From Exophiala sp. HKRS030 (Eukaryota > Ascomycota > Eurotiomycetes > Chaetothyriales > Herpotrichiellaceae), in the NCBI GenBank assembly GCA_023897205.1, contig JAHWDD010000010.1, positions 1,116,001 to 1,180,000 of the forward strand: 64,000 bases of DNA. The letters are read 5' to 3'. Of the stretch, positions 34,204 to 48,373 are shown piece after piece. Position 1 is the stretch's first letter, and every line of letters begins with the position of its first letter. The notes under the pieces were generated by a model, which was not told where the DNA came from, made no database searches, and was given only the letters and a program-made list of their open reading frames with translations. Made by a program: the position numbers and the translations under genes.

Positions 34204-35177
34204 TTAAGCCCTATTGCCTGGCATGTTTGAGAGCGCAATATCCTGGGTCGAGGCTCGTGACGTTGGAGGCGAACCTGCTAGTTGTTCGTCCCATTTCACC
34301 GCTCTCACGGACGCTTCGTGTTCACGCAGACGCTTGTTCCGTGCAGAACGACGCCAGAAGAAGAACAAGAGGATGCCAGCAATGGAGCCTACCCCTGCAA
34401 CAACGCCAACCACAATGCCTGCAATGGCGCCTCCCGAGAGACCTGGCGAGGATGATCTCGAGCTCTGCGAAGGGGCCGGTGCCGTGGCGCTCGCTCCCGC
34501 GGCTGTGCCTGAGGCGCTGGAGCTCGGCTCGGTGATGTTGAAGTCCTCGATTGTGGCGTTGAAGCACGGCACCTGGTAGGTGAATTGGCTGGTTGGGATG
34601 TAAGTTATGTCTGAACAGGCGTAAAATGTCTCATTCTTATCAGTGTCGAAGTCGGAAACGTATTTGATCTGCAGCGTGGCATTTGACCCGGTCTCGACGT
34701 CGGCGGGTGGGTTCACAATGGGGAAGCACTGGTGTCCTTCATCCAATTCTGGTATCCTCATTGGAGCGATGATCGTTTGGAAATCGTCGTTGGAGGTGGG
34801 ATCTACATTCACCCGTCAGCCTCAGTGCTCAGACATGTTTGGTTCTTTATGTCTTACTGTTGCTGTAGGATATGGCGACTTGGACCGACCAGGATTCATC
34901 CTGTGCTACAAGAGCAACCTGGCCATTGACTGCAAGAATTTTAGCACAGGAACTTAACAGCCCACACAAACATACGTAGTGGAAACTGGGTCCTGTTGGT
35001 CACCCCCGCCACTGAACCACAGGGTGCAGTATTGTCTTGAGCAGCTCCCCATACGCGGTCAGGTGGCCACATAAATGCAACCGGTCCCATCGTTTTGGAA
35101 TAGTCTTCGCCATGTTGCGCCTGGGCGAGGGCAATGATGCAAGCGCCCAAAGAGAGAAGGTTCAATCCGCCCTTCAT
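34204..35177 (-). CDS. BIM1-like (X325) copper-binding surface protein with membrane anchor
   Basis: Member of the copper acquisition factor BIM1-like (LPMO-related X325) family, which binds copper through an N-terminal His and handles copper at the cell surface rather than cleaving polysaccharide. Three exons: 35177-34976, 34929-34858 and 34802-34204; 290 residues. A signal peptide (~1-20) is followed by Gln21-His22, then MGPVAFMWPPDRVWGAAQDN and TAPCGSVAGVTNRTQFPL, hallmark sequence of the family. Conserved cysteines follow (GHQCFPIVNPP, FYACSDIT, QVPCFNAT). After a Ser/Ala-rich linker, a transmembrane helix (~218-240) and RRSARNKR stop-transfer lead to a ~45-residue cytoplasmic tail. Known members are often GPI-anchored; this one has a membrane span instead. 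If the signal peptide is cut after Ala20, Gln precedes the copper-binding His, so the exact cut matters. Confidence 0.88.
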
Positions 35178-37635: not shown

Positions 37636-39708
37636 CTAGGCGGTTTGTTCAACGTGTCGAACTGTCACTTGATGCTTCGCGTGCAGCTCTTCCGCAGGGG
37701 CATCGACCCGATAGTTCATCGTGGCACGCAGACCTCCCAGGAACCAAGAGGCCAAGAAGCCACACACCCCGAATGGCGCCGCGATGATGAAGACGGTCCT
37801 GAAGGAATCGGCTTGAGCTTGCAAGAGAGCCGCCGTGGCGGCCTGGATGACGACCGGCGTGATCCCGGGCACGTCCTGCAACGCCGTCGCATCATTCTGT
37901 AGGAACGCCGCGGTGAAGGCCGGCAGCGACTCCGGCAGGAGGCCGGCGGTGACGGCAGCCCTTGCGACGTAGGCGGGAATCTTGGAGCCGAGGCGGCTTC
38001 GCACGGCCGCCGAGTAGACGGCGGTGAAGGCTGATGCGGACAGTCCGCGCGCCGAGGCGACGAGCGCCGTGGAAGTGGCGAGCAGGTGATGCGGAGTGCA
38101 GAGCTGGGTGGCCGCCAGGGTCAGAATCAAAGTCCCACCGGATCCCAGGCCTGTCAAGGCGGCCATGGCGATCGAGGTGGTGGAGTCCTTTGGCTGGATG
38201 GTTGCAAATCCGACCGTTCCACCCGTCAACAGTACAAAGCTCAACCCCATGGGCCCGCGAATGGTCCTGAGCTTGGTGCTGGCATAGCCCGTCGAGAGGC
38301 ATCCGAAAATGATACCGACCCAGTATGCCTCCTGGCGAGCCGCCAACAGCATGGGGGTCTGCTCGAAAAGTGCGAGTGTGCTGGTGGGGAAGAAGGGAGT
38401 TCAGTAAGTGCTACCTCGTGTGGCCGTGACCAAGCAGGAGAACGGGTTGCCACTTACAGTGCCGGGAAGAATATCAGGTAAGAGAAACCGACGAGAGCTT
38501 CGACGACTATGAGGAAGATGCAGACGATCATGGTCCGACCGTTTCGACCACGGAAAAGTTCGTGGTTGACGAAACCTGTCTGAGTGCCATATCGCTCGTA
38601 CAGCCCGAAGGCGACGAGAGTCACTCCCCCGACAATCATCGTGACCAGGACTCTAGAGTTGGACCATGGATATAGACCGCCTCCGAGATTCAAACCGGCA
38701 ATCACCAGCGACATGCCCAGGGCGAGAATGGAGCAACCTACCAGGTCGACTCGGCCCACCTTTTGCAGGAAGGAAAGATGGCCGAAGCGACCCTTTCGCT
38801 TCAGAGGGCGGTATCCGAACAACAATCCTGCGGCACTCAGTGCCCAGAGGCCTGTCTGGACCCACTGCTTTCGAGTTAACCGGAGAAAGATCCAGACACA
38901 GGTACAGAGTAATTCACGCACATAAAAGTTCCGCCAGCCTTTGGCTCGATCGTTGATAGAAAACAAGCCCATGACCACGGGAGCCATCATTCCACCTAAG
39001 CAAGCCCCGACATTCATGGCAGCCTGTGTCACTAACGAAATAGACATTCAGTATGCAACGTTCCCAACTTGGCCTTGAGGCAGCCACTTACTTGGTCTCC
39101 ATCTCCGGGGAAGAATCTCACTCGGGACCACGTACGCCAGAGGCACCGCGGCCATGCCGACTCCGATCAGGCTTTGGGCTGCGATCACCTGGTATATGGT
39201 GGCCGACCGGGGGGCTATGGCCGATCCTACGAAAGCGACCGCGCAGGAAGCTATGAGGATTGATTTCCGAGCCTGGAAAGTGTCGGACGCAGAGGATACC
39301 ACGGGCGCGAGGACAGTCTGCACGAGACTGAGGGCAACGGGAATCCATGTTTGCACCGCGGCAGCATCGAAGTCTGCCCCGATGTAGCCAAGCTGTGCCA
39401 GAGAGCCATCCACGTCAGCAAATTCCACCCTCAACGTTGAGGCTCGGACGACACTCGTCTCATCTTACAAATGAAGGAGGGCCTTGAAGCGCAAATACTT
39501 GGACCAAGTTCAGGAAGAACAAGGCACCCACAGCCGTCCAGGTTCGCAGATGGAGGGCAGGCTCTTCTTCTGGATTGTCGTAGACCACATTCGGCTCTGC
39601 CGCATCCACCTGTTCTTCCGCCGAGCCGTCTGTCTTTTCCATGTGTTGAGTCGAAAATTCGATCTGCGGAGATTCCGCCTTGCGAGACAGCACTTGCTGC
39701 GCCTGCAT
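37636..39708 (-). CDS. MFS exporter, TRI12 (trichothecene efflux pump) type
   Basis: Drug:H+ antiporter-like membrane transporter of 600 residues and about 14 membrane spans. Five exons: 39708-39469, 39392-39092, 39031-38922, 38864-38458 and 38380-37636. The family signatures are QTWIPVALSLVQTVLAPVVS (spans 2), IYQVIAAQSLIGVGMAAV, LPRRWRPMTQAAMNVGACLG (after joining exons 2 and 3) and NFYWVQTGLWAL (exons 3 and 4). These match TRI12 and the related siderophore-type pumps. The intron between exons 3 and 4 is 57 bases with no in-frame stop, so retention would only insert 19 residues. The C-terminal tail is cytoplasmic. By context it probably exports the substrate or product of the neighbouring P450 and hydrolase (inference). 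Confidence 0.88.
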
Positions 39709-40689
39709 AGCGCCTGAACAAGTGTTATTACCAACACAGGCCTTCGTTGCGAGATCCTCAGCAGACCAGTACCTGGTCGTAATAAATCGAAGATGTAGAC
39801 TTGGTGTGGATTCTGTTCAAGATGGTAGGTACCGTTCTGGACGGGCGCACCCGAGCTTCTTATACAGTCTGCACGATACTGAACATCTTCGTGCAGGTAT
39901 TCCTGACCAGGCGGGGTCTAGACTCCATATTTGGTGATCACCCCGTGGGACAAACTAGTACTTCCAGGGTCGGAAAGGTTGTGGGCTCGTCCTGTTGGGA
40001 AAGAAACGATGTCGAAGGTTTGGGAGATTCCTCCTTTTCCATCGCCTCCTTAGAAGGCGCGGGACTCGATAAAAGTGGGAACTGGGCGGGCTGCGGGACG
40101 GCCTCGCACAGAGTCTGCCAGGCTTCATTTGCTCTCGTTGATAGTCCGGGGGTCCATTATAGGGTGGCACGTTGTTCGTTTTGGACTCCAAGCCTCGGGG
40201 GCTAAGTTCAAAGATCTTCGTAAAGGGACACCGATATGCTATGCTCTTGAGGGGATTGATGGCTGGACTTTGGACTTGTGTGTTCGTATGAGCCGTGTAT
40301 AACAAAATATTTGCACGATTGCAATCCCGTAGATGATACACGCTGAAAACCAGTTCGTAGTCAGCACTGCTAGCCCGCTTTGCACTTCCCACCACTTTTA
40401 TGCATAGCAAGGGGACCTCCAGAATACCAGGACCACACGGGCACCGCTAGATTTCACCCGGTGGTCGATCAAGGGAAGATTCAGAGGACAGGGACGTCCT
40501 TAGATTTGTTGCTACCGTCAATGTTCTTGCCACGCGTGTCATCATCCGTGCAGTCTCTGTTGCTGACAAGGAAATCTAAATGTGAATGAATTGATTGGGG
40601 ATACGCCCCTGATCTGTAAGGAGAGCACAAATCTACATATCTGTGGCCGCGCCGAGCTTCGACACCGGTTTGGGCACTTTCCGTAAGAG
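39709..40689. other. Intergenic within the four-gene block
   Basis: About 1 kb holding the MFS upstream region and P450 3' flank. Open frames on both strands show no features. No gene seen. Confidence 0.55.
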
Positions 40690-42393
40690 TTACCGCATTC
40701 GCAGGGTAATGTTGCAGCTTCGTCCTTTCGGAAATCCACCGAAGAAGTTGATCATGTCCATGTCATCCAGGTGTGATAGGGCCAGTCGCGCACCACGACA
40801 TTCCCGGAAGAACAATGCAGTAGCCACACGGAGTTCAATGTAGGCAAGATGTATACCGAGGCACACTCGTGAGCCGGCACCAAAGGCTGCAAATGGAGTG
40901 GCTTGCTCTTGCTCCGCGTACCTCTGCTGAAGGAACCTGTCGGGCTTGAACCTGCGTGTGTAGTCAGAATTTGTTCTGCTGTATAGTGGAGCTACTGCGA
41001 CTTCCGTCACGGTTTGGGGGGTGCAAGGGAGTGCCGTACAATTCAGGGCTCTCGAAAATCTCCGGCTTCCTATGCAAACTGTATGATTGTGTGCACACCT
41101 CTGTTCCCGGAGGTAGAAAATATTGTCCGATTTGCAGGCCTGCATTGGGGACAACGCGACGTAGACTGCCTGGAATTGGGCCGTACATTCTCAGCGTTTC
41201 TTGAATGACCGCATTCAAATACTGGAGTGACTCAAGATCGTTATCCGTGAAGTCGGTTGGAAGTGTAGAGACTTCATCTTCGAGCCTCTGTTGTATGCAC
41301 GGATTAGACAAGACTGCCCACACGAGATATGTCAGAGTCACACTCGTAGTCCCACCCCCAGCGCCGATTAATCCCGTGGCTTCAACGACGATGCTTTCAG
41401 CCGAGATGTAATTCTCGCTGGTCTCCTTCCCGCTGAGGTGACCTGTAAAGATATTCTTCTTGTCGATTGATCCCTCACCTGCTCGCTGTAGGACTTTCTT
41501 GCCCTGACGGATGATTTCTTTCTCGTCACCATTGACGTCGTAGATGAAGTTCGGTGCCAGGCGGAGTATATAGTATACGAAGGGAAGCTCGGCACGTAAT
41601 GTTGCGATGAACGAGAAGTCTTCGAACAGCTGTATGAATCCTGCTTTCTGTACAGGATTAATCGGTACGTCTCTAACTCCAACGTGGGGCGAAGCCTACC
41701 TTTCCCGTCTCGAGCATTCCGAAGGATTCACCAAAAGCAACCTGTCCGATTACATCCGTGGTAAAGAAGGACCACCATTCAAAGATGTCGCATACCCCAG
41801 TCTCGGCCTTTGACCTCATTTTCCGTAGTGCCAAGTGAGCCTTTTCACGCACAAGAGCTTCCCAGTTTTGCCTCAAATTCGACTTCGAAAACGGGCGGGA
41901 TAGGATTCTGCGCCGGACTGAGTGGCTCTGAATATTCGTCTCTGAGAAGACATCTTGGTCACGGTATGCTGTTCGAAACCTCGGGTACCATTGGCTCTTG
42001 GTAAATCCATTGCCGATCTTATGGATTGCGCGATAGCCATCAAGGTCTGTTACGTCGACCTCGTTCGGTGCGATACGGACCACTGGACCGTAGATTTTGT
42101 GTAGGTTGTCGATGTATTGCACCCTTCTGGCCTTGATAACGTGAACCTTGAGCGGCAGAGCTGTGAACTTGGCAAGCCAAGGGCCCGGGACGGAGGCCAA
42201 CGGGGTGAAATAGGCCGCGTAAACTGTCTGCAACACCATAAGCGATGGATCTGACAAACAATAAACGCCAGTTACCAACCTTGACCAACCAAAGTAACAA
42301 AAGGAGGAGCAGAGGCCATATCGTAATGGCTAGAGTGCCTGAGTCGCCAAACATGATGGTCCGATGTGCTAGATCACGAATAGTGGCCTGCAT
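40690..42393 (-). CDS. Cytochrome P450 monooxygenase
   Basis: Membrane-anchored heme monooxygenase, 503 residues, four exons: 42393-42280, 42227-41700, 41647-41040 and 40951-40690. Exon 1 holds the N-terminal anchor (IWPLLLLLLLWLVK) and exon 2 starts TVYAAYFTPLASVPGP, the proline hinge. The K-helix is QETLR (Glu364, Arg367), the PERF-type segment is FKPDRF, and heme binding is FGAGSRVCLG with Cys447. In the I-helix the sequence is AGGGTTS (~310-316): the acidic residue normally before the Thr pair is Gly, which may alter proton delivery. Intron 1 uses a GTTGGT donor; the nearby GTAACT would break the frame. Family resembles pisatin-demethylase-type and benzoate-type fungal P450s, but I do not assign a CYP family. 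Confidence 0.92.
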
Positions 42394-42976
42394 TTCGGTG
42401 ACTCTCTGGATGTCTTGCAAGCGACATTGGCTGTAAGGTTCGAAAGCGAAGGATATATATAGGAAAAGGTGGAGCTCTATCCGATTCAGTCGAAGCTCGC
42501 CAAGGTATTGAAGTTCCCATGACTGGCTAGTGTGCTGTGCGTCAGGGACTTGACGGTGGGAGTGGGAAATTCTGAGTGGGTGGGAAGTGTTCAATGAGTG
42601 GGAAGGCGGGAAGCACTATAAACCGAATTTCCTCTTAGCTACCACATCGAAGCAGCTCGACACTATTGCGGCCGAGCCATATCGGTGGGCAGGGAGTAGG
42701 GGAGGCTTACCGTAGCCGTTCTTCAAGTCTGTGTTTGTATAATTGCACAAGAGTACTGCGGTTGTAAACATTTCGACACTTCCCGTGCAGCTTGAAATCC
42801 ATTTCTCTTTTCCGTCGGACTATTTTGATCTCTGCTCAATGACCCGCGTCAAAAGGATATGTCGTTGTTGATCCTTCCAGTTCGGGTCCTCCATCTCTGG
42901 TCAACATTTGTCGATTTGGCTGAGATCCATGCGATCAAGCACTCAAATGGCCGGAATTACACAATGGCTACCTTCT
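42394..42976. other. Intergenic, P450 promoter region
   Basis: Contains a TATATATA about 60 bases before the P450 start and the 3' flank of the regulator gene. No gene seen. Confidence 0.6.
42454..42461 (-). promoter_or_regulatory. TATA box of the P450 gene
   Basis: TATATATA lies 61 bases before the P450 ATG on the minus strand. The ZHD101-like gene in the same block has an identical element at a similar distance. Confidence 0.5.
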
Positions 42977-45632
42977 TCAGGCACAATTGCCAGAGATGAA
43001 GACCTGTAAAAGTTCCCCAAGTCTCCGCGATATTCCACTGGTTTGAAGTCGGTATAGTGTGGATTCAAGAACACAGAGTATATCGGCCTTTATTTCAACT
43101 GGATTGCCTGCGAGAAATCTCTGAAGATCTGAAATTACTTTATCGATGACAAGATGTGGCGGCGACATATGAGTTCCGGACTCATGCAAAAATCGGATTT
43201 CCGGGAGCTCCTTCAGATACGATACGCACTCGTCATCAGACAAGTTTTTCGAATCGGCGGTATCTGGACTTCTAGGTAGATATAGCATGTAACAGTACCA
43301 ACATAGAGCAGCGGAGAAGAGGATTCGGGGAGTATGCATGGCAGTAGCAGAGTCTACCGTCGTTGATCGCAGCAGATTCTGCAGACACAAAGCATGAAGG
43401 AGGCATCTTTTGGATTCTGGAGACGAAATCCAAGATCTCACATAGTCCCTTACGTTGGGGGAAATATCACTTCCCTCTCGTCCAACGGCAATCTCCAGGA
43501 GGTTAAGATCTGTCGATAGGATCATGAAGATGTAATGCCATAGTGGTCTCAAGCAGAATGGAAGCTCGCTTTGCCTCAGGCTCCGACAATCACCATATTG
43601 GCAACAGTTCTTGCTTGAAGCGTACCAGTTCACGAGTTCAATTTCAAAGTCGAGGATACGCTGCGCCGAGAGGAGTTTAAGATGCCGGCACTCAACGATG
43701 GTAGCACTTACACCGGCAAGAGCTACCCATGAACGCAAGCCATGTTCATTCGATTTCTCAATCGTGATTGTCGAAGACTCACCGGCCGTGGCAGGAGAAG
43801 GTGTTGTTTGGACCTGTCGCCTTCTCTGATATTCTCTATATCTTGTTGCCCACACTGTCGCTGTTGGTGCATGAAATAACTCTGCAGGAGCCAGGGTAGG
43901 TAGCGGTTGTGCGCTGTGGCGAAATATAGGTTCATGGTGGAAGAGCGCAGCAAGCTCTGCATCGTGAACGTAAATGATGGCTGCTGCCCTGATTGCTTCG
44001 TCAGTGCTGTCAGAGAGCAATCATACGCCAAAACCTAAAGTTCACCTTTTCATCTCCTCCCCCCTGGCCCACTGTTTCCATACCTTTTCAAGGTCATCCC
44101 TGGTAAGGTGCTCTGGCAACTCCAGATCGGAAGCCTCTGTGAACAATCTAGCATGCCGGCCAAGCTGCTTTCTTGTCAGTGTATGCCATCGTTTGCATGA
44201 ATTTTCCATACCGAAATGATGGTCCCATGGTACCCATCTGCAATCACTCGGTGCGCACGGTCTTGTGATAGCAGTGCGAAGGTCGCGCCGATGACGGATC
44301 CTTTGATGTTGTCTCTCTCCAAGTGTGGTCGTTCCAACAGCATCCTCTCCCATGATCCTGCATTTCCAACTTTGAGGACACGCTCAAAAAGCATTGTTCC
44401 CAGACGCAAGGCCTTATCAGATGGCATCGTTGACGCGCCCGCAGAACACATTGTCAAGACAAGTAAGATGTTGCCAGCGCTGGGCTTGAATGTTGGGCCG
44501 TGGATAAGGGGTACCGCAACATTGAATCTTGTGAAAAACAAACGCATGCAGAGATTCTAGGCCTTCGTTAGAAGTTGCAAGGTAGATATTGCAAGACAAC
44601 ATTACCAGGATATCAATAGATGGTAGGGGTTCATTGCGCAACGGTGGACGAAGGCCTTCGGTCAATTGATTATGATATAGCTCATCGATATCTCTCCCCC
44701 TGGCAGCAGATGGCGGTTTTCCGGTATCGTCGGGGTCGTAATCAAGGTCGACGAGTGCACTTCGTGTCTGCACATGCCACATACGTCGGAGGTCCAAAAC
44801 CTTTGGAGCTAGGTTGCCGTCTTTAGTTGAGTTTGTAGCTGCAGGTCGCTGATATATTAGGTCAGATGAGATTCGGTTTGCGCCAAATAAGAGGTCGTCG
44901 CCTGACAGATTGATGAAATCTTCGTCTAGGAGCCAATTTGAAGCATCGAATTGTACAAGGGCGTCAGCGAAAGTAGCACCGTCCATCATACTCTCGTCGA
45001 GCCCGGCGTCGTTTTCCGAAGCGAGGATACTACGATTCCAGCTGGCTTCAATGGATTCTGCCACTGTTGACGTAAAACCCACGTCCTGATCGGAAAAATC
45101 GCTGGAGTCTTGGTTCCGCGAAGGAGTCCCAACGCTCAAGAGCGGTGCCTTCGCTTTCTCTCCATGCAGAGTCTCGTGCTGTAGAGTGGAGATTGTGGCA
45201 GTCGTGCCATGGCCAGGGCTGAAGCGCAGAGTGCCGTCCAGATGTTCTGATCCTGCTGGAGATCCGGAAGGTAGGTGGTTGCTATACTCCCGAGACGCTG
45301 AGTGTTCCGTGATGAAGGACGAGCTCTCTCTGTCAATGATGTTTAGGTCATTTATGAGGTCGGCAGAGGAGATTGCTTCGTTGTTTCGTCTCGCATTGTG
45401 AATCTTGATATGGCGTAGGAGAGTATCACTACGCTCGTTAGATGCAAGAGCCGTCAATGCAAGCGTGCACGCACCGGCGTGGGTAAAACTTTTTACACAC
45501 TCGGCACCCAAAAGGCTTCTCATTCGTATGGGACCTCAGATGACGCTCATAATGATCATTCTTCGTGAATTCTCTTGAGCAGTATGGGCATTTGCGCGTC
45601 TTCCCGCCCGTCGGGGCAACCGATGCATGCAT
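42977..45632 (-). CDS. Transcription factor with two C2H2 fingers and fungal_trans domain
   Basis: Putative regulator of the surrounding four-gene block, 824 residues from five exons: 45632-45475, 45428-44606, 44556-44212, 44164-44046 and 44006-42977. Finger 1 is C15/C18/H31/H35 (CPYCSREFTKNDHYERH); finger 2, completed across intron 1, is C43/C46/H59/H63 (CRVCKKFYPRRDTLLRH). The fungal_trans part starts near SIDILNLCMRLFFTRFNVAV and contains FHHEP and a helical C-terminal half. The intron before exon 4 ends AAAGCAG, so two acceptors three bases apart are possible. The last intron is only about 39 bases. An in-frame ATG at 45797 would add 55 residues. Combination of C2H2 and fungal_trans is common in pathway-specific fungal regulators. 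Confidence 0.87.
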
Positions 45633-46303
45633 CCTTGAAGATAAATCCGCAGGTCTAGATGGATGGGAAAGATTTACGATGTCAGTGATATGATTGGAAC
45701 GCTCCCAAGAAACAATCGAGACTATCGCGCACGACAATCGTCGCAATACGAGCAAATGAAGAGATGTTTGGCCGCGGGAAATTACGGAATGATACATCTA
45801 GGGTCATCGGGTTCTAACATAGAATCGATATTGGTTTCCCTGCAGTATGAAGGGCCTGGCCGAAAGGAGCAAGTACAGTATTGTGCGCTACAAGGGAGCC
45901 CCGACCGCATCCCCAGCTCTAGCCTGATCTGTTGAACCTCCTTTGCGGGCCTTTGATGTAGTCCTGATTGGGATATCTCCATGGCGGGGGAAGGGAACGA
46001 GCTTGACGAGAAGTGCGGGCCAAATGTGGGAAACCGAGAAGGTTGGAAAGTCGAATGCAACAATGTGACTGTGGGAGAACGCTTTCATCAGATCATTCCG
46101 AGATCTCTCCTACATGATGGCTACGGAAAACAAAACCGAACTTCCCACAAGCCTTGTGCAAAGACTCAGTCGTGAGTTTGAGGAAATGAAGATGATTTCC
46201 AGTTCCGAATTTGCCTGCATCCTCGCTTTCTGGTTGTTGGTTACATTTCAGGAAAACACTCGACTTCTTGATTTCCATCTTATTTCCATACTCTTATTTT
46301 CTT
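45633..46303. other. Intergenic within the four-gene block
   Basis: Upstream region of the regulator and 3' flank of the hydrolase. No gene seen. Confidence 0.6.
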
Positions 46304-47101
46304 TCAAAGGTACTTCCGACATGTATCGACAACGTATTTGGCGAAAGCCTCGGGATGAGAGACATATGGGAAATGACTCCCCGGGAGAATGCCAATGTGT
46401 ATGCCTTCCCTGCCTGCTATGACGAAATTCTCCCAGAACGCCTCGGACGGAGTAGACGCTCCCACGGTCCAGTCTATCGGTCTTTTATGGAGGTCTTCAC
46501 TTGCCGTGGGTGCTGATGGGGGTATGGTGCGAGGATATCCAGCTGTCCAACGAGGGTAATTGATGTGAAGCCTGGCGTGGACTTCCGGGCCTAGAGCATC
46601 CCAAGCCTCGACACCGCCAGAAAAGAACCTAGTGACGGCTGCCATTTTATCCGCGATCTCAGCAGGGTTGAGATCGTTGATGCCATGAAGCTTTTCGGGG
46701 TTCGTCATTGGAAGTTCGTGCGCCATCGCATTGCGCACACGTTCTGGGAAAGCTGCACAGAGTGCAAGCACTGTGGTTGCGCCCGAGCTACAACCCCAGA
46801 CCGAGGAATCCTTGATGCCCAGGTGTTCCAGAAGAGTATCGACATAGGTAGCTAGCTTATGGCCTGTCACATCCTTGTACGTTTCGGGCGGTGCCTCCGA
46901 TGACCTTGACATTCCAGGCATGTCGAATGTTGTTACGCGGAAGCCATTGCTGGCTATGATTGACATGGGCTTGTCGAACATTTGGCACTCACCCAAGCCA
47001 TCTGGAACTAACACGATATCAGGCCCAGAGCCTTGTTGCTCGTAGTACCATTTGATGCCGTCCTTGGTCTCAGTTGTCGATCTTATGCGGGCAGAGACCA
47101 T
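46304..47101 (-). CDS. Alpha/beta hydrolase, ZHD101-like (zearalenone lactonohydrolase family)
   Basis: Single-exon 265-residue protein that closely follows Clonostachys rosea ZHD101, the enzyme that opens the macrolactone ring of the mycotoxin zearalenone. Shared blocks include WYYEQQGSGPDIVLVPDG, GECQMFD, GFRVTTFDMPGMSRSSEAPP, YPRTIPPSAP, DWTVGA and GSHFPYVSHPEAFAKYVV. The catalytic triad is intact: Ser105 in WGCSSGATT, Glu129 in AHELP and His243 in GS-H-FPY. A Trp in NYPRWTAGYP (Trp185) matches the ZHD101 substrate-stacking Trp183. Length equals the family norm (~264). Whether the substrate is zearalenone or another resorcylic lactone cannot be known. It lies upstream of, and in the same orientation as, the regulator, P450 and exporter. 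Confidence 0.93.
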   Translation of the reverse strand: MVSARIRSTTETKDGIKWYYEQQGSGPDIVLVPDGLGECQMFDKPMSIIASNGFRVTTFDMPGMSRSSEAPPETYKDVTGHKLATYVDTLLEHLGIKDSSVWGCSSGATTVLALCAAFPERVRNAMAHELPMTNPEKLHGINDLNPAEIADKMAAVTRFFSGGVEAWDALGPEVHARLHINYPRWTAGYPRTIPPSAPTASEDLHKRPIDWTVGASTPSEAFWENFVIAGREGIHIGILPGSHFPYVSHPEAFAKYVVDTCRKYL

Positions 47102-48373
47102 GATGACGGTCGATGTTCAGCCACTCTCGAGGTAAAGTACAGGCTGGATGCATCTCAACAACGTGCTGTACACAATTTATATATACCCAGGCATTTTAAC
47201 ACGTATGTATGCATACATCTCGATTCAAACCACCTCAGACTAATTGCGTGGGAAGGTGGATAATACTGCAGCGGTAGTTTCCCGTCCGTCCCGCCATCCC
47301 ACCTTCCCACCTCCCGAACTTATACTGACATACAAGCAAACAAAGACGTGACCGGATCAATCGTTTGGTGCCAAAAAGTACTCGGTGCCAATGCTTCCTA
47401 GTTGGGCCCATGCTGTTTCAAGCGCCTTGACTGCTTATGCCCCATTTTTGCATCCCTCATAACAAGGTCTGCATGCGGGCGTGGATCCCAAGCTCACTCA
47501 CTTAGCATTCCGACGGCATATCCCATCTTCAGTAAGAGGTTACTCGCACATCCATAAGATCCGAATTTGGCCTAGGGGGCAGCACCAGGCTGCGGGTGAG
47601 GCTGTCGTGTGCAGGGAATAGATCATGTTCTCGTTCCTCTGCGCTAGATACATGGCGCAGTGGCCGTAGTTGATGCTCCCACTCGTGATGGTAAGGTACC
47701 ATTAACATACGTACACACAATAATGGCGAACCAAGCGAATAAGCAACTTGCTCCTTCTCATTGTCACTGGCGAAGAGTACGAGGCACTCATGTTTCTCTT
47801 GCACCCGTTGACATATCGTATATTTTTCAACTCCTTCCTATAGCGTTCGATGCGCAAAAGTGTGAAGAACGAAGAGGTTCAAGTTGACGAACTTGCCCGT
47901 TTGCAAAGAGTTATCGAGCATATTGAAGCAGGAGGACCTAGATCGAGGGAACCGCAGATGTAGTAGAGTACTTGTGAACGATGTATTGCAAGGTCGGAGT
48001 GGTGAGGCGCGGACGGTTCAACCAAGTCTTGGCGCCGAGACGAGGCTGATCTCCCCGAGTCGATTGGCCCGAAAGAGAAAGTTGCTAAGCTGCGTCCCGG
48101 GACGACTTTGACCTTTTTATTTAGCAAAACCACCACGACTGGCGTTCAAGCGCAATCTAGATCTTCGTATTCGTGCTCTACAGTCTTTCTAAGCTTCTTG
48201 AAAGATATTGAACCAGGATCTCCAACCTCCCAGCGACCTTCCCGAAACGATCGTCTGCATACGAATTACAAAGTCTAAATTTCCCTGCAACAGCCCACGA
48301 CGCATTCGGGTCTGAGCCCACGACTCCTCGATCCTCAGCTTCCGGGGCTTTCCAAAGACGGAACATATAAACG
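47102..48373. other. Intergenic, right boundary of the four-gene block
   Basis: Divergent promoter region between the ZHD101-like gene and the ribosomal-protein gene. TATA element near 47180; no gene recognised in the remainder. Confidence 0.6.
47178..47185 (-). promoter_or_regulatory. TATA box of the ZHD101-like gene
   Basis: TATATATA about 77 bases before the hydrolase ATG on the minus strand. Confidence 0.5.

What the first reader, a model, noticed from the sequence alone, without database searches (positions are those of the whole stretch)
37636..47101. Four-gene block pairing a ZHD101-like lactonohydrolase with a P450, a TRI12-type exporter and its own regulator
All four genes lie on the minus strand in tandem. 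The hydrolase has the full ZHD101 triad and the substrate-stacking Trp. TRI12 pumps export mycotoxins, and C2H2/fungal_trans proteins are often pathway-specific regulators. There is no PKS, NRPS or terpene synthase, and housekeeping or surface genes flank both sides (Bim1-like/GPI on the left, bL17m on the right), so this looks like a detoxification or catabolic module for a resorcylic-type lactone rather than a biosynthetic cluster. ZHD homologues are known as single genes; I am not aware of a described module of this kind. Families are established knowledge; the joint function is inference.
Basis: partly seen in the sequence, partly recalled or inferred. Interest (0 to 1): 0.8.

Follow-up and report, generated by a model that had tools for sequence, protein, structure and literature searches.

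The report
Fungal gene cluster against macrolactone toxins
Four neighbouring genes in a black yeast look like one switchable kit for opening, oxidising and pumping out ring-shaped antifungal toxins such as zearalenone, with a shared DNA tag in front of all four genes that the kit's own regulator could read.

Summary
The four genes are real, intact and in tandem on the minus strand. The species is almost certainly Exophiala oligosperma: P450 and transporter are 100% identical to PV06_09633 and PV06_09632. The hydrolase is a ZHD101-family enzyme with triad and Trp; homologues from six other black-yeast species are listed in a review as zearalenone hydrolases. No PKS or NRPS match lies on the contig. 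(1) GTGGGAA occurs nine times in the four upstream regions (2, 2, 3, 2), never inside the genes, about 19-fold over background; 1 of 1,500 random non-coding draws does as well. By the recalled zinc-finger code it fits the cluster's own C2H2 regulator. (2) The block is not seen elsewhere as a unit, but pairs recur: hydrolase and P450 relatives are three locus tags apart in E. spinifera; hydrolase and a TRI12-type transporter are neighbours in E. aquamarina and C. chaetospira, with transporters of another clade. Best reading: an inducible resistance cluster against benzenediol-type macrolactones, like the Fusarium FDB clusters. Substrate, export direction and regulator binding are inferred. My ten open-access library searches, not all aimed at this, listed no description of such a cluster.

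The parts
46304..47101 (-). ZHD101-family lactonase gene, intronless, 265 aa; Ser105-Glu129-His243, Trp185
   Evidence: only copy in the held genome
42977..45632 (-). two-finger C2H2 plus Fungal_trans regulator, 4 introns (45474-45429, 44605-44557, 44211-44165, 44045-43989), 818 aa
   Evidence: the second finger is completed across the first intron; start ATG chosen by me, 45797 is an alternative
40690..42393 (-). cytochrome P450, 3 introns (42279-42228, 41699-41648, 41039-40952), 503 aa, haem motif FGAGSRVCLG
   Evidence: identical to PV06_09633 of E. oligosperma
37636..39708 (-). MFS transporter matching Pfam TRI12, 4 introns (39468-39393, 39091-39032, 38921-38865, 38457-38381), 600 aa
   Evidence: identical to PV06_09632 of E. 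oligosperma
47248..47310 (.). upstream of the lactonase: GTGGGAA at 47248 (+) and its reverse complement at 47304, 147 and 203 bases above the ATG
46026..46148 (.). upstream of the regulator: GTGGGAA at 46026 (+) and its reverse complement at 46142, 394 and 510 bases above the chosen ATG
42562..42604 (.). upstream of the P450: three direct GTGGGAA copies at 42562, 42580 and 42598, spaced 18 bases, 169-205 bases above the ATG
   Evidence: the 18-base pair occurs 6 times in the 59.8 Mb genome, 2 of the 6 here, control pattern 0
40075..40392 (.). upstream of the MFS gene: GTGGGAA at 40075 (+) and its reverse complement at 40386, 367 and 678 bases above the ATG

Best explanation
The block is an inducible xenobiotic-resistance gene cluster against antifungal macrolactones of the benzenediol (resorcylic) type made by competing fungi. 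The C2H2/Fungal_trans protein binds GTGGGAA sites upstream of itself and of the other three genes and switches them on together when the lactone, or a stress it causes, is present. The lactonase hydrolyses the macrocyclic ester with its Ser-Glu-His triad; the P450 oxidises the lactone or the opened chain; the MFS pump removes lactone or products. Shown here: the four intact genes, the active-site residues, the shared upstream word, no PKS or NRPS match on the contig, and pairing of ZHD with a close P450 relative or with a TRI12-type pump in other black yeasts. Inferred: substrate class, order of steps, direction of transport, and that this regulator reads the word.
For: Sequence: 74% identical to the R. 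mackenziei enzyme as deposited in the PDB, 71% to C. bantiana's; solved zearalenone hydrolases match end to end. Passages of PMC12613374 (Table 1) list zearalenone hydrolases from R. mackenziei, C. bantiana, E. spinifera, E. aquamarina, F. multimorphosa and F. monophora; passages of PMC8879097 describe the C. bantiana and E. aquamarina enzymes as degrading it. Regulation: GTGGGAA 9 times in 3,307 upstream bases against 0.47 expected from 183,855 background bases, 0 in the four genes; 0 of 300 dinucleotide shuffles reach it; 1 of 1,500 draws of real non-coding DNA, simple repeats excluded. By the recalled recognition code, finger helices KNDHYER and RRDTLLR suggest GNG-GGR, which contains GTGGGA. 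Precedent: in C. rosea, ZHD101, a P450, an MFS and ABC-G transporters are in the zearalenone-induced library (PMC3902428, passages), and disruption of the lactonase made C. rosea sensitive (PMC12115441, passage). Kind: the FDB1 cluster holds hydrolases, a hydroxylase, an MFS and a Fungal_trans regulator (PMC4726666, passages).
Against: No four-gene unit was seen in another species: the best E. spinifera TRI12-type relative is PV08_06676, far from its ZHD. Several species with a close ZHD (C. bantiana, C. immunda, F. multimorphosa, F. monophora, P. macrospora) have no entry among the 120 P450 hits listed of 247. The three ZHD-linked transporters are not one clade (p-AU 0.013), so this pairing arose more than once or was swapped, or is partly chance. 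The regulator was not searched in other species. Without the filter for simple repeats, 3 of 400 non-coding draws hold some 7-letter word as often, and 2 of 400 some 8-letter word as often as CTTCCCAC. The broad code-derived pattern GNGGGR is only 2.3-fold enriched, and its GAGGGR and GGGGGR forms not at all. The word also occurs 11 times in the rest of the window. No expression data; no test on any lactone.
Confidence: 0.6

Rival explanations
1. Chance neighbours: a ZHD gene, a P450, a regulator and an MFS, all but the first from large accessory families, lie together without joint function in a P450- and MFS-rich genome.
For: The genome has many P450 matches (101 rows, exon-wise) and many MFS relatives (88 rows); no four-gene unit seen elsewhere.
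Against: Shared GTGGGAA in all four upstream regions and in none of the genes. ZHD-P450 three tags apart in E. spinifera. ZHD next to a TRI12-type gene in 2 of 9 species with usable tags on both lists; 21 ZHD x TRI12 pairs at about 12,000 genes each would give about 0.004 adjacent pairs by chance. The two cases are sister genes, so perhaps one event.
Confidence: 0.2
2. A catabolic module: the lactone is opened, oxidised and used as carbon; the MFS protein imports it.
For: Black yeasts are credited with degradation of aromatic compounds (PMC5844311, abstract and passages); transport direction is unknown.
Against: No aromatic ring-cleavage gene among the four; TRI12/DHA2-type proteins are mostly exporters (recalled). 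The ZHD-linked E. aquamarina transporter matches the DHA2 efflux model EmrB at 3.8e-22, below that model's cut-off; the window's own transporter matches no NCBIfam model.
Confidence: 0.1
3. Siderophore use: the transporter imports an ester siderophore and the hydrolase opens its ester, like the esterase beside a siderophore transporter known in Aspergillus (recalled).
For: 17 of 107 transporter relatives carry the automatic name siderophore iron transporter; the Pfam TRI12 model also catches siderophore transporters (recalled).
Against: The hydrolase is 57-74% identical to enzymes reported to hydrolyse zearalenone, with the same triad and Trp, and a P450 has no obvious place in siderophore release.
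Confidence: 0.05
4. A remnant or satellite of a biosynthetic cluster, with the hydrolase acting as tailoring or self-protection enzyme.
For: P450, MFS and regulator are usual tailoring parts (general knowledge).
Against: No ketosynthase (0 of 20) and no NRPS condensation match (0 of 24) on contig C10; housekeeping-type genes on the right flank.
Confidence: 0.05

Closest known systems
ZHD101 of Clonostachys rosea and black-yeast zearalenone hydrolases (RmZHD, CbZHD, EXO, ZHD_LD)
   Same: whole-length match, Ser-Glu-His triad and Trp, close identity; same enzyme class
   Different: treated as single enzymes in what I read; here next to P450, pump and regulator with a shared upstream word. Phe160 stands where the R. 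mackenziei sequence has Tyr
FDB1/FDB2 xenobiotic resistance gene clusters of Fusarium (PMC4726666)
   Same: hydrolytic step, hydroxylase, MFS transporter and Fungal_trans regulator in the FDB1 locus, no backbone synthase in its table
   Different: metallo-beta-lactamase against plant benzoxazolinones, Zn2Cys6 regulator, nine genes in FDB1; here an alpha/beta lactonase, a P450 and a C2H2 regulator
Zearalenone response of C. rosea (PMC3902428)
   Same: lactonase, a P450 and an MFS transporter among the induced transcripts
   Different: there the emphasis is on ABC-G pumps, and physical linkage was not reported in the passages I read

Membership tests
ZHD101-type zearalenone lactonase | alpha/beta hydrolase matching over the whole length | tested here: met
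   residues 5-265 align with zearalenone hydrolase 3wzl, E 3e-108
ZHD101-type zearalenone lactonase | Ser-Glu-His triad and substrate-stacking Trp | tested here: met
   Ser105, Glu129, His243, Trp185. In 19 aligned rows all agree except Ala at the Ser column of the PDB-derived R. mackenziei row, which I take for a crystallography mutant
ZHD101-type zearalenone lactonase | hydrolysis of zearalenone | not testable with these tools
   homologues at about 57-74% identity are listed as zearalenone hydrolases (PMC12613374, PMC8879097, passages)
Xenobiotic resistance gene cluster (FDB1-like) | contiguous detoxifying enzyme, transporter and pathway-type regulator, no backbone synthase | tested here: met
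Xenobiotic resistance gene cluster (FDB1-like) | co-regulation | tested here: inconclusive
   shared upstream word; no expression data
Xenobiotic resistance gene cluster (FDB1-like) | resistance lost on deletion | not testable with these tools
   needs a knock-out
Conserved four-gene module of black yeasts | same four genes together in other species | tested here: not met
   only pairs (ZHD-P450 in E. spinifera; ZHD-TRI12 type in E. aquamarina and C. chaetospira); judged from locus tags on capped lists, regulator not searched
TRI12 trichothecene efflux pump | match to Pfam TRI12 over its cut-off | tested here: met
   75.5 bits, cut-off 23.2, positions 47-556 of 599
TRI12 trichothecene efflux pump | orthology to TRI12 and mycotoxin export | not tested
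   the family is broad; 17 of 107 relatives are named siderophore iron transporters
Secondary-metabolite biosynthetic cluster | PKS, NRPS or terpene backbone gene nearby | tested here: not met
   PKS 0 of 20 and NRPS 0 of 24 matches on the contig; terpene search uninformative

The most novel reading that the evidence does not exclude
Black yeasts carry a dedicated macrolactone-response regulon. A C2H2 regulator reads GTGGGAA, and its target set is built by repeatedly bringing a lactonase together with a pump and a P450, more than once and with different transporters: a fungal counterpart of bacterial resistance islands, aimed at benzenediol lactones.
Probability: 0.35. Interest if true: 0.7.

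Novelty: new variant of a known kind. Interest (0 to 1): 0.55.

Why it matters
In the reviews I looked into, zearalenone hydrolases are treated as single enzymes for feed use; their native role in black yeasts is, to my knowledge, open. A linked pump, P450 and regulator with a candidate binding word would make that role directly testable (induction, binding, deletion), could give a lactone-sensing regulator for biosensors, and would add a fungus-against-fungus case beside resistance clusters against plant compounds such as FDB1/FDB2. It bears on the question, reviewed in PMC12115441, of what macrolactones are for.
Full report
Observation. The four genes are real and intact. Reading the minus strand with GT-AG introns gives 265, 818, 503 and 600 residues without an internal stop (regulator stop at 42977). 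The P450 and MFS models equal E. oligosperma PV06_09633 and PV06_09632 over their whole length, which points to the species and confirms the splicing of those two; the regulator model has no such check. Pfam assigns Abhydrolase_1, zf-C2H2 with Fungal_trans, p450 and TRI12/MFS_1. The flanks are Ribosomal_L17, IF-2B and NIF phosphatase on the right, BIM1-like and AIM5 genes on the left. The held genome has 59.8 Mb in 50 contigs; the window is C10:1116001-1180000.

Hydrolase. Best solved relatives are 5xo6 (R. mackenziei), 5xwz (C. bantiana) and 3wzl (the C. rosea-type enzyme); species of the chains from papers and recall. Identity by alignment: 73.6% to the R. mackenziei row, 71.3% to C. bantiana, 70.5% to E. 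spinifera, 56.9% to E. aquamarina. Ser105, Glu129, His243 and Trp185 are present. The R. mackenziei row has Ala at the nucleophile; it stems from a PDB sequence, and I take it for an inactivated crystal variant. Residue 160 is Phe where that row has Tyr. A review table lists zearalenone hydrolases from R. mackenziei, C. bantiana, E. spinifera, E. aquamarina, F. multimorphosa and F. monophora (PMC12613374, passages; also PMC8879097, passages). That our enzyme acts on zearalenone is therefore likely but untested. In a tree of 42 of the 120 listed homologues (169 found), window, E. spinifera and P. macrospora fall in a 6-row set (SH-aLRT 97), and R. mackenziei and the Cladophialophora/Fonsecaea group in the wider 12-row set (100); E. 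aquamarina and C. chaetospira form a separate pair (98).

Shared upstream word. While reading the sequence I noticed a repeated word; I then counted all words without preference. GTGGGAA is the 7-letter word found in all four upstream regions with the highest count: 9 copies (ZHD 2, regulator 2, P450 3, MFS 2) in 3,307 bases; 0 of 300 dinucleotide shuffles had such a word as often, nor an 8-letter word as often as CTTCCCAC (6). The window holds 20 copies in all, 11 of them outside these regions, one just past the 3' end of the MFS gene; 0 lie in the four genes. Background: 26 copies in 183,855 bases (29 sequences of this genome; 13 loci left out, 9 because they overlap the window and 4 because the word itself fetched them; two background loci overlap each other), 7 in 51,748 non-coding bases; Poisson P about 1e-9 for this word, not corrected for the choice of word. 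Corrected: drawing four stretches of equal length from non-coding background, some 7-letter word did as well in 3 of 400 draws by plain count (two of them AGAGAGA), some 8-letter word in 2 of 400, and in 1 of 1,500 by a log-likelihood score with simple repeats excluded (7-letter words). The three copies before the P450 are direct repeats 18 bases apart; that pair occurs 6 times in the genome, 2 of them here, and the backward control 0 times. By the recalled zinc-finger recognition code, finger 1 (KNDHYER) suggests GGR and finger 2 (RRDTLLR) GNG, together GNGGGR; GTGGGA fits. Not all that fits this code is enriched: GNGGGR 2.3-fold, GTGGGR 5.5, GCGGGR 3.7, GAGGGR 0.9, GGGGGR 0.3. The regulator's own upstream region has two copies, so self-activation is plausible. 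Binding is inferred.

Gene order elsewhere. No fungal genome collection could be read as DNA; I used locus tags and contig lengths printed with homologues, on capped lists. E. spinifera: ZHD PV08_07297, P450 PV08_07294 (64% identity; apart from R. mackenziei at 61% the next hit has 49%), both on a 3,726,234-base contig. E. aquamarina: ZHD A1O9_11392 and TRI12-type A1O9_11391, both on 645,342 bases. C. chaetospira: ZHD H2200_003704 and H2200_003703, both on 1,878,169 bases. Not adjacent by tag: E. spinifera, C. bantiana, C. immunda, F. multimorphosa, F. monophora, E. bonariae, S. tyrrhenica. So 2 of 9 species with usable tags on both lists have ZHD next to a TRI12-type gene; species without serial tags on both lists (R. 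mackenziei, Z. cellare, T. proteolyticus, Xylaria and others) were left out. With 21 ZHD x TRI12 pairs and about 12,000 genes per genome (12,527 for F. pedrosoi, PMC5640708, passage; otherwise recalled) about 0.004 adjacent pairs are expected. The E. aquamarina and C. chaetospira transporters are sisters (73%), the window's belongs to another clade (tree of 54 of 107 hits); holding the three together is rejected at p-AU 0.013 (33 rows; tested). Thus the pairing arose at least twice, or the transporter was exchanged.

Not a biosynthetic cluster. No ketosynthase (0 of 20) and no NRPS condensation match (0 of 24) lies on contig C10. The terpene search proves nothing because none of its controls rang.

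Transporter label. The TRI12 match is over the cut-off but modest (75.5 bits of a 599-position model). Relatives carry automatic names of siderophore iron transporters (17 of 107), MFS drug efflux pump (1), trichothecene efflux pump (1) and drug resistance transporter (2) (my count of the cut names). The ZHD-linked E. aquamarina relative matches the DHA2 efflux model below its cut-off; the window's own transporter matches no NCBIfam model. Export is my preference, not a result.

Mechanism. Lactone enters; the regulator, directly or through a stress signal, activates all four genes at GTGGGAA; the lactonase opens the ring; the P450 oxidises; the pump removes. Parallel: C. rosea has ZHD101, a P450 and an MFS gene in its zearalenone-induced library, with ABC-G pumps (PMC3902428, passages), and loses tolerance without the lactonase (PMC12115441, passage). 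The architecture resembles the FDB1 resistance cluster (PMC4726666, passages) with other protein families in most roles.

Novelty. Library searches touching ZHD with gene clusters, neighbourhood or locus tags and black-yeast genomes or fungal resistance clusters gave listings in which I saw no such module; in the main text of the 2025 review of these enzymes the words gene cluster, P450 and transporter do not occur. Only open-access papers are held and I read passages, not all listed papers, so print elsewhere is possible.

Verdict. A credible, testable resistance cluster; the regulatory word and the recurrent pairs are the new facts. Function remains inference.

Noticed in passing
L031 (1501-1525), L032, L033, L034: Four other genome places carry two GTGGGAA words 18 bases apart; in L031 the pair lies just upstream of a frame that looks by eye like a Zn2Cys6 regulator, with an amidase-like frame, also by eye, before it (no family search run).
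   Followed up: partly
[not shown]
   Followed up: partly
window 34204-34815 minus: A BIM1-like (copper acquisition factor) frame with a Ser-rich tail lies to the left of the block.
   Followed up: no
protein P0343 (E. xenobiotica LTS15_009481): A 715-aa database protein combines ABC-transporter domains with an MFS piece 63% identical to the window's pump over 31% of the query; likely a fused gene model.
   Followed up: no
G000:C8:827452-828691: P450 paralogue with the highest identity by pieces in the same genome (48% and 38%); a frame at C6:74589-76022 scores more bits at 31%. Surroundings not examined.
   Followed up: no
whole genome G000: 59.8 Mb in 50 contigs is large by my recollection for Exophiala (about 38 Mb), yet the ZHD gene is present once, so plain duplication of everything is not the reason.
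   Followed up: no
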